Shown piece after piece: positions 1-62,432 of a stretch of 64,000 nucleotides of DNA (position 1 is its first letter; the number at the start of each line of letters is the position of its first letter). Where the stretch lies: NCBI GenBank assembly GCA_949948715.1, contig CATLGW010000004.1, positions 1-64,000 of the forward strand, given 5' to 3'. This DNA comes from an uncultured Lachnospiraceae bacterium. GTDB lineage: Bacteria > Bacillota > Clostridia > Lachnospirales > Lachnospiraceae. The position numbers were made by a program, and so were the translations under genes. Below the pieces are notes generated by a model. The model was not told the origin of the DNA. It saw only the letters and a program-made list of their open reading frames with translations, and did no database searches.

Positions 1-1
1 T

Positions 2-1330
2 AGCAGCCTAAGAAGTATAGATTTGAGCAGTTTTAATACCGGGAATGTGACAGACATGAGGGAGATGTTTTCTGGTTGCAGTAGCCTGAGTAACATAGAC
101 TTGAGCAGTTTTAATACCGGGAATGTGACAGACATGGGGAGTATGTTCGCTGGTTGCAGCAGCCTGAGTAACATAGACTTGAGCAGTTTTAATACCGGGA
201 ATGTGAAAGATATGGGGAGTATGTTTTCTAGCTGTAAAAGTCTGAGTAGTATAGATTTGAATAGTTTTAATACTGAGAATGTGGTAGATATGGGGGGGAT
301 GTTCTGGGGCTGTAGCGGCTTGATAAGTATAAATTTGAGCAGTTTTAGTACTGAGAATGTAGCAGATATGGAGAGTATGTTCGCTGGTTGCAGTAGCCTG
401 ATTAGTATAGATTTGAGCAGTTTTAACACCGGGAATGTGACAGATATGTGGAGAATGTTTTCTGGTTGTAGCAGCTTGAGTAATATAGACTTGAGCAGTT
501 TTTATACCGGGAATGTAACAAACATGACGTATATGTTTAGAGGGTGCAGCAAACTGAGCGGTATAGATTTGAGCAGTTTTAATACCAGAAATGTGACAGG
601 CATGGGGGAAATGTTTTCTGGTTGCAGTAGCCTGATTAGTATAGATTTGAGCAGTTTTAACACCGGGAATGTGACAGATATGTGGAGAATGTTTTCTGGT
701 TGTAGCAGCCTGAGTAATATAGATTTGAGTAGTTTTAATACTGGGAATGTGACAAACATGAATGAGATATTCTCTGGTTGTAGCAGCCTGAGTAATATAG
801 ATTTGAGTAGTTTTAATACTGGGAATGTGACAAACATGAATGAGATATTCTCTGGCTGTAGCAGCCTGATTAGTATAGATTTGAGCAGTTTTAATACCGA
901 GAATGTGACAGATATGGGGGGAATGTTTTCTGGTTGTAGCAGCCTGAGTAATATAGATTTGAGTAGTTTTAATACCGGGAATGTGCGTGAAATGTGGGCT
1001 ATGTTCTTTGGCTGTAGTAGCCTGAGTGATATAGACTTAAGCAGTTTTAATACCGGGAATGTGACAAATATGGGGTGGATGTTCTCTGGCTGTAGTCGCC
1101 TGAGTAATATAGATTTGAGCAGTTTTAATCTTGGGAATGTGGTGTATATGTATGGGATGTTCGAAGATTGTAGCAGCCTAAGAAGTATAGATTTATGCGG
1201 TTTTAATATTGAAAAAGTAAGAGATATGCGTTGGATGTTCTCTGGCTGCAGTAGCCTGAAAAGTGTAGATTTGAGTAGTTTTGATACTGGAAAAATGGCT
1301 GGCGAATGGGATTGGTTTGATGGTATATTT
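2..1330 (+). repeat. Tandem 78-bp repeats encoding DUF285 units
   Basis: About 17 direct repeats of 78 bp (26 codons). The offset was measured directly from the repeated string cctgagtaa at 85 and 163. Two adjacent copies, from about 696 and about 774, are identical over roughly 80 bases. A second nearly identical block recurs at about 400 and 634, an offset of exactly three units. The array is therefore young in places and likely to change copy number. Confidence 0.9.
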
Positions 1331-16139: not shown

Positions 16140-17072
16140 CTAGAAATTCTTCTCCTGCGGTATATTCAGTTCTGTATAAATCAGATGAATCAGCGGTTGG
16201 GAAAAATCATAGTCCTTTTTCCACTGAGGGTTCAGGGCATCCAATATCATACATTGCGCCATTCCCGCCCTGTAATATTTATTTGAGCCTTCCCCGTATT
16301 CGCCGATATTATCGATATAATTGACTTTGAAGCTTTCGGGAGCCAGCCTGTAATATACGCTGGCCTCGATGTAACGGGCTGATCCCTCCACTCTTGTATA
16401 ATATTCTTCAAGAGCTGTTACGTCAATGGAAAGCAGTGCCCTTCTCTCACCGTCCAGCCTCTTATATTCTGCAATATACTCTCTTATTTTGTCAATATCA
16501 TCTGTCTTTACCGCGTTTTCAAGCAGAGCCGCCTGCTGCTCGAATAAACTGACCGCCTGCCGGTTTGTGTCGGCGTGTTCGACAATCAGATTTTCCGCCG
16601 CTTTCCCCTGCCAGAGGGCTTCTATGGGGCCGCGATAATTGGTAAGCTGCCAGCAGTGAAAGGCTTCGTGCCATAGGGTGGCGACACAATCTTCCCTTTC
16701 GTATTCCCAGCTTCCCCCGCTCATCATACCCAGAAACGACGACATTTTTTCAACGGTGGGCGAAAGAACTTCATAATGATCGTCCACGGAGTATGCCGTT
16801 GCGGCTATGGAATTTATGACGGGCCTTCGCCTTTCTATAAGGTAGCCGTTGTCTTTCCACCGGATCACATAATCGTGATCGCCGTCATAAAAGGCCACCG
16901 GGTAATCGGTTATGGCAAAACCCTCAAATCCAAAATTACCGTTTTCCTGCTCCAACGCTACCGCCTGCTCATATATAGCAATATTATCTTTTGAGAGACC
17001 GTAGCTGCCTGTGGCGATAACTCCCGCAGTAAGGGCGGCGCCTAAAAGAGATACAGCTATTTCTTTTTTCAT
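16140..17072 (-). CDS. Membrane-anchored or secreted zinc metallopeptidase (HExxH)
   Basis: 310 residues from ATG 17072 behind aaaaaagga; the ORF track start at 17183 runs back through the structured element and is rejected. MKKEIAVSLLGAALTAGVIA is a signal peptide or N-terminal anchor. TLWHEAFHCWQ holds a perfect HExxH zinc site (about residues 135-139). About 90 residues later EGSARYIEA supplies Glu residues like the third ligand seen in gluzincin (peptidase MA) families. I infer an extracytoplasmic zinc peptidase of unknown substrate. Its place between an ABC exporter and a two-component system suggests that it processes or destroys a peptide that the system senses or exports. The family was not identified. 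Confidence 0.75.
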   Translation of the reverse strand: MKKEIAVSLLGAALTAGVIATGSYGLSKDNIAIYEQAVALEQENGNFGFEGFAITDYPVAFYDGDHDYVIRWKDNGYLIERRRPVINSIAATAYSVDDHYEVLSPTVEKMSSFLGMMSGGSWEYEREDCVATLWHEAFHCWQLTNYRGPIEALWQGKAAENLIVEHADTNRQAVSLFEQQAALLENAVKTDDIDKIREYIAEYKRLDGERRALLSIDVTALEEYYTRVEGSARYIEASVYYRLAPESFKVNYIDNIGEYGEGSNKYYRAGMAQCMILDALNPQWKKDYDFSQPLIHLIYTELNIPQEKNF

Positions 17073-17191
17073 AATCGGTTTTCCTTTTTTGAGTTTCGCG
17101 TTTGCCCTTCCGGTACCTTGACAGACAGAACAAGGTCCGTCTGAAAGAACCATCCGGACCTTGTTCGGGCACTGTCCGGGCATCTGCTGTT
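17073..17191 (-). repeat. Structured 5'-leader element, copy E (before zinc peptidase)
   Basis: The folded core is 17098-17187 on the minus strand. It shares the acaGC...TGCCCggacAGTGCCC and GGTACCggaaGGGCA...GC ends of the other copies. Its central stem is GAACAAGGTCCG/CGGACCTTGTTC (12 perfect pairs, unlike the central stems of the other copies). The tail gaaactcaaaaaagga supplies the Shine-Dalgarno of the peptidase gene, whose ATG is 25 nt after the core. The outer stem is the most decayed of the five copies. Confidence 0.65.
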
Positions 17192-28831: not shown

Positions 28832-28918
28832 TATTTACCCGGTCCTCCCGCTCCCCGGCGGATATGCGCGATACCCGCATTTACCATGGGATTCCGGCTA
28901 AGAAACGTCAAGAATTGT

Positions 28919-29038
28919 TTTTACAGCATCTGCCCGGACAGCGCCCGGGACAGTATCCGGCTATGCCTTTTTGACGGATATTGTTCTGTCGGTATTGGCG
29001 CCGGGAGGGCGGATGCGGAACTAAAAAGGAGAGAAAAA
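28919..29038 (+). repeat. Structured 5'-leader element, copy C (before ridA)
   Basis: The folded core is 28926-29016. The outer stem is GCATCTGCCC/GGGCGGATGC (one wobble), the second stem GCGCC/GGCGC, and the central stem CAGTATCCG/CGGATATTG, different in sequence from the other copies but still paired. The tail ggaactaaaaaggagagaaaaa contains the Shine-Dalgarno and ends at the ridA ATG, 22 nt after the core. Confidence 0.8.
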
Positions 29039-44098: not shown

Positions 44099-44113
44099 GA
44101 TGCGGAACTAAAC
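44099..44113 (+). repeat. 3'-end remnant of the structured element
   Basis: gatgcggaactaaac directly after the stop TGA of the upstream gene equals the 3' tail of copies A and B. With the two full copies it forms a partial third unit, as expected for tandem duplication. Confidence 0.7.
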
Positions 44114-44220
44114 TGACAGCATCTGCCCGGACAGTGCCCAGAACACTGTCCGGCAAAGCCATACAGCCCGGACATTGATCTGCCAGAGACGGTGCTGGGA
44201 GGGCAGATGCGGAACTAAAC
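44114..44220 (+). repeat. Structured 5'-leader element, copy A (tandem unit 1)
   Basis: 107 bp, nearly identical to copy B (one base longer in the central loop). The core is 44119-44210: outer stem GCATCTGCCC/GGGCAGATGC (10 perfect pairs), second stem AGTGCC/GGTGCT with wobbles, central stem CACTGTCCGG/CCGGACATTG. It ends ggaactaaac and runs directly into copy B. Confidence 0.85.
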
Positions 44221-44340
44221 TGACAGCATCTGCCCGGACAGTGCCCAGAACACTGTCCGGCAAAGCCATACAGCCGGACATTGATCTGCCAGAGACGGTG
44301 CTGGGAGGGCAGATGCGGAACTAAAAAAGGAGAGAAAAAA
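44221..44340 (+). repeat. Structured 5'-leader element, copy B (tandem unit 2)
   Basis: Core 44226-44316 with the same stems as copy A. The tail ggaactaaaaaaggagagaaaaaa holds the Shine-Dalgarno and ends at the ATG of the next gene, 24 nt after the core. The tail differs from that of copy A exactly where a start codon follows. Confidence 0.85.
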
Positions 44341-44979
44341 ATGGTAAAAAAACTGACTTTTAAATCGTGGTTGAACTCGGGGCTTCTCATTCTTTTTTGT
44401 CTGATTCCCGGTACATGGGCTCTTTTGCGGTACGGCCCTCATGCCCTGGTGGCGCTTTCCGGAGGCGTGCCCTGGCTGAACGAGTCTATGGGCAATATCT
44501 ATGGAATGTCGGCGTTTGGCCTCCTTATGGTGATCATCGGCCTGTTTATTTTGGTAAAGCAGTTCACTTCCTCGGTGAGCAGGCTGGTGAAGCGCTATCT
44601 GACGGAGCACCCGGAGGTTACCATGGAACAGCTCGACAGTGAGTTTGCCGCTGCCCGGAAAATCGAAAATGTGTGGGTCGGCAGGAGGTGGACCTTCAGC
44701 CACCATCTGCGCTTTATTGTGGTGGATAATGAGAATATCGCCTGGGTCCACAGCAGAAGGGAGCGCAACAAAAACGGCACCAGCTATTATCTCTGTCTGG
44801 GAATGGCCGACGGAAAGACGGATGAGGTGAAGATGAGCCACGGAAGTCTCTCGGAGATCATGGAGCTCTATGAGAAGTATCCTCATATTGTGGTGGGGAA
44901 TAACCCGGAATACGAATATCAGTTCAAGCACGACAGGGAAGCTTTTCTGAATATGAAATACCGACAGGGAAAGGACTGA
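44341..44979 (+). CDS. Two-TM membrane protein of unknown function
   Basis: 212 residues from ATG 44341; the ORF track starts 20 codons earlier inside the structured element. TM1 is about 10-30 (SGLLILFCLIPGTWALL) and TM2 about 55-77 (MSAFGLLMVIIGLFILV). The remaining 135 residues are cytoplasmic, with VWVGRRWTFSHHLRFIVVDNENIAWVH and a KYPHIVVGNNPEY segment that looks like a PH-like beta fold. I cannot name the family. Translation must run through the tail of copy B of the structured element, which provides its ribosome binding site. Confidence 0.65.
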   Translation: MVKKLTFKSWLNSGLLILFCLIPGTWALLRYGPHALVALSGGVPWLNESMGNIYGMSAFGLLMVIIGLFILVKQFTSSVSRLVKRYLTEHPEVTMEQLDSEFAAARKIENVWVGRRWTFSHHLRFIVVDNENIAWVHSRRERNKNGTSYYLCLGMADGKTDEVKMSHGSLSEIMELYEKYPHIVVGNNPEYEYQFKHDREAFLNMKYRQGKD

Positions 44980-56172: not shown

Positions 56173-56188
56173 TGCGGAATTCAAAAAC
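56173..56188 (+). repeat. Degenerate 3'-end remnant of the structured element before copy D
   Basis: tgcggaattcaaaaac resembles the tail tgcggaactaaaa of the element and lies immediately before copy D, repeating the remnant-plus-copy order seen at 44099. Confidence 0.45.
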
Positions 56189-56189
56189 A

Positions 56190-56305
56190 AAACAGCATCA
56201 TCCCGAATGGCGCCCATGGAATGACCGGAAGCGAAGCGGCCGGGAATTCCATGCCCGGAGAGGTGCCGGGAGGGAGGATGCGGAACTCAAAATCAGGAGG
56301 CCACT
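56190..56305 (+). repeat. Structured 5'-leader element, copy D (before the beta-galactosidase)
   Basis: Core 56195-56281: outer stem GCATCATCCC/GGGAGGATGC (9 of 10 pairs), second stem GGCGCC/GGTGCC, and an unrelated but perfect central stem CATGGAAT/ATTCCATG. The tail ggaactcaaaatcaggaggccact carries the Shine-Dalgarno and reaches the ATG 24 nt after the core. Confidence 0.75.
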
Positions 56306-62126: not shown

Positions 62127-62144
62127 ATGTTACCTCCTAATTTA

Positions 62145-62185
62145 GTCGCTGCGCGACGGCTCTCCCGGGGAAGTCCCTTCGGCGC
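62145..62185. repeat. Direct repeat copy 1 with GTCGC/GCGAC hairpin
   Basis: gtcgctgcgcgacggc...ggggaagtccctt.ggcgc. It shares two conserved blocks with copy 2, 141 bp away. The first 13 bases form a GTCGC/GCGAC stem. Confidence 0.7.
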
Positions 62186-62285
62186 ATATGTTGAGAGTCA
62201 GCCTTCATGCGCAGGGGAGCGCCTGAAAGCTGCTCTCATGCGCCCTTGGGGCTTCCCTGGGTGTTTTCTGCACATTTTAGCTGCA

Positions 62286-62328
62286 GTCGCTGCGCGACGG
62301 CACTCTGAAGGGGAAGTCCCTTAGGCGC
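62286..62328. repeat. Direct repeat copy 2
   Basis: gtcgctgcgcgacggcactctgaaggggaagtcccttaggcgc; identical to copy 1 in the first 16 bases and in most of the ggggaagtccctt block. Confidence 0.7.
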
Positions 62329-62432
62329 GGTCTCATTTCCAGTATAAACCATTTTTTGATGAGGGGCAATTGTAAAAATTTGGGCGCAAATGATGTAGAA
62401 AGTAAGAATATTATGTAGAAACCGGTAATTAT

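What the first reader, a model, noticed from the sequence alone, without database searches (positions are those of the whole stretch)
44099..44340. Repeated foldable element carrying the ribosome binding site, here in tandem
Five copies in the window (44119-44210, 44226-44316, 28926-29016, 56195-56281, and 17098-17187 on the minus strand) share the ends acaGCATCTGCCCggacAGTGCCC and GGTGCCgggaGGGCAGATGCggaacta. The two outer stems keep pairing through changes (second stem GCGCC/GGCGC, GTGCC/GGTAC, GGCGCC/GGTGCC). The central stem has an unrelated sequence at each locus yet is complementary every time. Unpaired ggac and ggga stay constant inside the stem, as in a structured RNA. Every full copy ends 22-25 nt before an ATG and its tail supplies the Shine-Dalgarno (the first tandem unit runs into the second). 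Either a new cis-regulatory RNA class or a mobile hairpin that lands at start codons. I match it to no known riboswitch.
Basis: partly seen in the sequence, partly recalled or inferred. Interest (0 to 1): 0.88.

Follow-up and report, generated by a model that had tools for sequence, protein, structure and literature searches.

The report
RNA hairpin repeats at ribosome-binding sites
One group of gut bacteria carries dozens of copies per genome of a roughly 105-letter RNA hairpin placed, in one orientation, directly in front of the ribosome-binding sites of unrelated genes; its sequence changes freely while its fold is kept, which points to a spreading repeat that works as a structural part of messenger RNAs.

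Summary
All five window copies exist and covary. The same fold occurs about 40 times in this incomplete genome (66.7% complete) and in 32 of 121 sampled genomes of its genus (Lachnospiraceae, near Acetatifactor), up to 87 copies per genome, but in no other genus among 173 sampled. Rfam has no match. Of 183 testable arrays, 172 end directly before a Shine-Dalgarno and start codon in the sense direction; an antisense control gives 4. Downstream genes share no theme and include rplL, atpD, leuS, clpP and ridA, so it is not an ordinary riboswitch. Between two sister species, orthologous copies carry 21 compensated double changes against 5.3 expected, and more G-U than A-C intermediates (28 to 11): the sense RNA fold seems selected in place. 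Copy number varies between the sisters, "empty" sites often keep only the 3' tail, and ridA has the element in one of 30 genomes, so units come and go. P1 sequences vary freely (not a classical MITE), and Y1/RAYT transposases do not co-occur with it. Best reading: a spreading, sense-oriented leader hairpin acting in cis as a generic mRNA insulator or stabiliser. The spreading machinery and the exact effect on expression are unknown.

The parts
44119..44210 (+). Family A hairpin, tandem unit 1 (one extra C in P3)
44226..44316 (+). Family A hairpin, tandem unit 2; P1 10 bp, GGA/GGA loop, P2, 8-nt 3' bulge, P3 14 bp
44099..44115 (+). 5'-truncated family A unit (3' tail GATGCGGAACTAAACTG), directly after the upstream stop codon
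   Evidence: general pattern
44317..44343 (+). Tail GGAACTAAAA, SD AAGGAG and start codon ATG (44341) of a DUF6709 gene
28926..29016 (+). Family A hairpin before ridA (ATG 29039)
28892..28922 (+). 31-nt repeated motif TTCCGGCTAAGAAACGTCAAGAATTGTTTTT directly 5' of the hairpin; in this genome 7 of 8 hits of its core lie directly 5' of a family A unit
56195..56281 (+). Family A hairpin with divergent P3, before a GH42 beta-galactosidase (ATG 56306)
56174..56185 (+). Remnant tail GCGGAATTCAAA of an upstream unit
17098..17187 (-). Family A hairpin before the gene starting at 17072 (minus)
62144..62257 (-). Family B hairpin ending in GTCGCGCAGCGACT, before SD and start of a DUF4317 gene
62285..62330 (-). 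5'-truncated family B unit directly upstream of the full unit

Best explanation
A lineage-specific family of about 105-nt leader hairpins that spreads within genomes to the spot directly 5' of Shine-Dalgarno sequences, in the sense orientation, and is then kept as a structured part of the mRNA. Shown: fold, covariation, position, orientation, gene-independence, clade restriction, turnover, tandem arrays, and excess compensation between orthologs. Inferred: it acts in cis at RNA level, not on one metabolite but generically. Most likely it walls off the downstream cistron: a stable helix of about 34 bp ending about 10 nt before the SD would block a 5'-to-3' exonuclease or be cut by a double-strand RNase, giving the downstream gene its own protected 5' end, with unit number as a tuning knob. 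Not known: the enzyme that inserts it.
For: Structure: 141 copies, 91.6% of pair cells formed vs 64.0% shuffled, 999 double-change cells vs 268, slid controls 30-49% (CM-fitted alignment, so it leans towards the fold). Less biased test: 15 orthologous pairs from sister species G479/G492, 27 double changes vs 11.0 expected (max 19 of 2000 permutations), 21 compensated vs 5.3 (max 12), G-U 28 vs A-C 11. Position: 172 of 183 arrays before SD and start codon, mode 18-23 nt from GGAAC, antisense control 4; most of the 11 exceptions precede another unit or a weaker SD. Transcribed by context: between rplJ and rplL and between atpG and atpD, between T-box terminator and leuS SD; 131 of 167 arrays follow a same-strand gene, 91 within 60 nt. 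Gene-independent. Spread: 32 of 121 genus genomes, none in 172 other sampled genera (shallow scoring). Turnover: ridA 1 of 30, sister empty sites and 2-vs-1 units, neighbours in an array 0.93 identical vs 0.64 between arrays.
Against: No expression or RNA-decay data; the insulator/stabiliser step is inference. G-U pairs are rare in P1 (42 of 1836) and the anchored G-U vs A-C comparison there is not significant (42 vs 26, p=0.07), so DNA-level maintenance of the palindrome is not excluded. The ortholog test still uses elements that a covariance model found, which slightly favours G-U. Frequent loss down to a solo tail at essential genes (purH, upp, mfd) says the hairpin is dispensable at single loci.
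Confidence: 0.5

Rival explanations
1. Purely selfish hairpin mobile DNA: a folded single-stranded DNA end is recognised by an unidentified recombinase whose target is the SD (AGGAGG, or CCTCCT on the other strand). The SD survives insertion, so arrays form. The host gains nothing.
For: Fixed 3' boundary at the SD, arrays, 5'-truncated units directly upstream (87 of 169 vs 30 control), patchy species distribution, solo tails at empty sites, stem sequence free while fold is kept, few G-U pairs in P1.
Against: Compensation and G-U excess between vertically inherited orthologs suggest selection in place. Y1 transposases, the obvious hairpin-recognising enzymes, occur in 8 of 32 bearing and 32 of 89 other genomes and were not found in this genome. 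Nearly no copies stand elsewhere in the genome.
Confidence: 0.3
2. Ligand-sensing riboswitch or gene-specific cis-regulator.
For: Strong covariation, leader position.
Against: Downstream genes have no common theme and include many housekeeping genes; conserved unpaired sequence is short; the SD is outside the helix; no Rfam match.
Confidence: 0.07
3. Classical MITE moved by a DDE transposase through sequence-specific terminal inverted repeats.
For: Palindromic ends, many dispersed copies.
Against: 115 different 10-nt 5' arms among 204 units; orientation and site are fixed; no fixed-length target duplication seen.
Confidence: 0.04
4. Transcription attenuator or terminator upstream of genes.
For: Stable hairpins in leaders.
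Against: No U-tract follows; GGAACUNNAA and an SD follow instead; found between rplJ and rplL and between atpG and atpD.
Confidence: 0.04

Closest known systems
BOX, RUP and SPRITE repeats of Streptococcus pneumoniae (PMC3049150)
   Same: Small dispersed, foldable, transcribed repeats with variable unit number; one BOX sits between two T-boxes; no functional theme of neighbouring genes
   Different: BOX/RUP/SPRITE are over-represented between convergent genes; here sense orientation directly before the SD is near-universal
REP/REPIN elements with RAYT transposases (PMC2817692, PMC3116915, PMC3733652)
   Same: Many intergenic palindromes, clusters, stems that vary with pairing kept
   Different: REPs are 20-40 bp with GTAG or CGTC tags; here about 105 nt, no such tag identified, head-to-tail only, no Y1 association
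ERIC and Correia elements (as reviewed in PMC3049150)
   Same: Intercistronic hairpins that are cut by RNases when transcribed, the closest functional analogy
   Different: Those families are recognised by conserved sequence (own knowledge); here only the fold and the foot are conserved
Integron attC sites (from own knowledge)
   Same: Fold conserved rather than sequence, bulges, an AAC near the foot
   Different: No cassette arrays; core-site motif layout does not match; neighbours are ordinary operon genes

Membership tests
Known Rfam RNA family | Match at or above a curated gathering score | tested here: not met
   window; family B and G018 loci; sub-threshold matches are chance-like
Riboswitch | Restricted, functionally coherent regulon | tested here: not met
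   78 downstream proteins, no theme by inspection; rplL, atpD, clpP, UvrB-interaction-domain protein
Riboswitch | Ligand binding and switching | not testable with these tools
   needs in-line probing
REP/RAYT system | Y1 (RAYT) transposase in bearing genomes | tested here: not met
   8 of 32 bearing vs 32 of 89 other genomes; none found in G000, which is 66.7% complete
REP/RAYT system | GTAG or CGTC tag and 20-40 bp palindrome | tested here: not met
   units about 100-106 nt with ACAG and GGAACT ends
MITE (DDE type) | Sequence-conserved terminal inverted repeats | tested here: not met
   115 distinct 10-nt 5' arms among 204 units
MITE (DDE type) | Short target-site duplication | tested here: inconclusive
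   upstream repeats of 12-96 nt match the unit's own 3' end, not a fixed-length target copy
BOX-like repeat | No preference for the 5' side and sense strand of genes | tested here: not met
   172 of 183 sense before SD against BOX data in PMC3049150
Integron attC | Cassette array with integrase | not tested
   integrase not searched; genomic context of ordinary operons argues against
Correia-like RNase III substrate | Cleavage of the transcribed hairpin | not testable with these tools
   needs RNA-end mapping

The most novel reading that the evidence does not exclude
A new class of mobile element whose insertion site is the Shine-Dalgarno itself: arrays are written in one event by copying a circular template of about 105 nt (RNA or single-stranded DNA) from a primer at the SD. 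This would explain the intact 3' end at the SD, near-identical units within an array, and a 5'-truncated first unit, in families A and B alike. The host then uses the hairpins as leader parts.
Probability: 0.13. Interest if true: 0.92.

Novelty: new variant of a known kind. Interest (0 to 1): 0.72.

Why it matters
Known bacterial repeat families mostly avoid translation starts. Here a repeat sits at them in nearly every case, in one orientation, before genes as central as rplL and atpD, and evolves almost free of sequence while keeping its fold. It offers natural replicates (dozens of leaders per genome, sister species with and without a unit at the same gene) to measure what an SD-adjacent helix does to mRNA decay and translation, and it points to an unknown mechanism that recognises or spares SD sites. 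It also shows how a structured RNA can spread across unrelated genes in one bacterial lineage.

Tried and rejected
Rfam at gathering and E-value thresholds: nothing. Y1/RAYT mobilisation: no co-occurrence. Phage carriage: no exact element in viral contigs; five tail-pattern hits were chance. Functional theme of genes: none by inspection. leuS survey of named genomes: no family A copies in 1.4 Mb of flanks apart from two marginal hits, the one inspected looking like coding sequence. G-U vs A-C on anchored P1 alone: inconclusive. Literature for an SD-locked hairpin repeat in Lachnospiraceae: none found in the held library. A ridA protein tree hints that bearing genomes cluster, but is too short to settle it.

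Full report
Observation. The fold is a long hairpin: P1 (10 bp), a 3x3 GGA/GGA loop, P2 (5-7 bp), an unpaired 7-8 nt on the 3' side, P3 (about 14 bp) and a variable loop, followed by the single-stranded tail GGAACTNAAA, the SD and the start codon. Four copies already covary. Rfam knows none of it. The tandem at 44119-44316 is two near-identical units plus a 5'-truncated third unit that starts right after the upstream stop codon.

Census. A covariance model from four window copies found about 42 real copies in this genome, a MAG of 66.7% completeness (the few remaining hits are antisense matches of the same palindromes or marginal). Read without selecting for position, they almost all run into an SD and ATG on the same strand. 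In the genus, 32 of 121 genomes carry it, with up to about 32 copies scored per genome; two sister species searched in depth have 87 and 58. In 392 genomes of the order (173 genera) only this genus scored (only ten candidates per genome were scored there, so a sparse distant relative could be missed). The nearest named relatives by leuS include 'uncultured Acetatifactor' records. G021 appears to be CANSPM01, an uncultured Lachnospiraceae MAG, because its contig C20 has the same length as CANSPM010000020.1, 59431.

Position. Over 194 arrays from ten genomes, 172 of 183 testable ones end before an SD and a start codon on the same strand, mostly 18-23 nt from GGAAC to the start; the same test on the antisense side gives 4. 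Most of the 11 exceptions precede another hairpin unit, a family B element or a weaker SD; only two decayed copies in G000 (C9, C36) clearly lack an SD directly behind them. 131 of 167 arrays follow a same-strand gene, 91 within 60 nt of its stop codon. Units lie between rplJ and rplL and between atpG and atpD and between a T-box terminator and the leuS SD in two species, so they are transcribed by context. Downstream genes have no common function.

Fold under selection. With 141 copies from eight genomes, 91.6% of pair cells form (shuffled 64.0%), 29 of 30 pairs show double changes, and slid controls drop to 30-49%. That alignment is fitted to the model, so I repeated the test on orthologous elements of sister species G479 and G492, whose flanks are mostly 83-95% identical while the elements are 74-83% identical. 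In 15 pairs aligned to each other without the model, 27 base pairs changed on both sides against 11.0 expected by permutation, and 21 of these stayed paired against 5.3 (maximum 12 in 2000). One-sided changes gave 28 G-U and 11 A-C. Since G-U on the sense strand is A-C on the other, this favours selection on the sense RNA. The anchored P1-only version is weaker (42 vs 26, p=0.07), and G-U is rare there, so DNA-level maintenance of the palindrome is not excluded.

Turnover. ridA has the element in this genome but in none of 29 relatives inspected, most of which share the upstream gene. Of 40 G479 loci, about half have a G492 counterpart among the fetched element loci, often with 2 versus 1 units. 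For 11 other loci the sister site was located; most lack the hairpin, one (L316/L376) keeps a diverged one, and several keep only the tail GCGGAACTNNAA before the SD. 87 of 169 arrays carry a 5'-truncated piece matching their own 3' end directly upstream (30 with a unit from another array); neighbouring units are 0.93 identical, different arrays 0.64. P1 is not a conserved terminal repeat: 115 different 5' arms among 204 units. Y1 transposases are not associated, and the phage contigs scanned do not carry it.

Related families. Family B (ending GTCGCGCAGCGACT; one full and one truncated unit in the window at 62144-62330 minus) has a related layout, the same place before the SD in 23 of 39 sites of its tail pattern (the rest include tandem upstream units and chance matches), and the same hosts: 20 of 26 genomes with it also carry family A. 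A third variant ends in GTCCGCGAAGCGGACT in G018. Neither matches Rfam.

Reading. The best-supported account is a spreading, sense-oriented leader hairpin kept for its RNA fold and acting generically in cis. That it insulates or stabilises the downstream cistron is inference, by analogy with intercistronic ERIC and Correia elements that are cut by RNases (PMC3049150) and from the geometry. Its spread to SD sites is shown by distribution and turnover; the enzyme is unknown. A selfish DNA hairpin with an SD target is the main rival.

Noticed in passing
window 62144-62330 (minus); L108, L139, L394, L404, L409: Second hairpin family B with tail GTCGCGCAGCGACT, mostly before an SD, with tandem and 5'-truncated units; absent from Rfam; found mostly in the same genomes as family A.
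   Followed up: partly
window 28892-28922; G000 C1, C2, C7, C9, C16, C24, C27: 31-nt repeated motif GTCCGGCTAAGAANNGTCAAG.. directly 5' of family A units in this genome (7 of 8 hits), also seen once in G026 (L077); possibly the true left end of the element.
   Followed up: partly
L222, L223 (G018): Third variant: hairpin with a 3' bulge followed (L222) by GTCCGCGAAGCGGACT, or a similar small hairpin (L223), and the SD, in a genome without typical family A copies.
   Followed up: no
L043 (G000 C9), L125 (G026): leuS leaders in which a T-box is followed by family A (and in L043 family B) hairpins between the terminator and the SD.
   Followed up: partly
window 1-1314: A run of 14 or more 78-nt tandem repeats inside a long open reading frame (probably a repeat protein).
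   Followed up: no
G492 loci L374, L378, L379 (purH, upp, mfd): Solo tails GCGGAACTNNAA without a hairpin before SDs, like scars of deleted units.
   Followed up: partly
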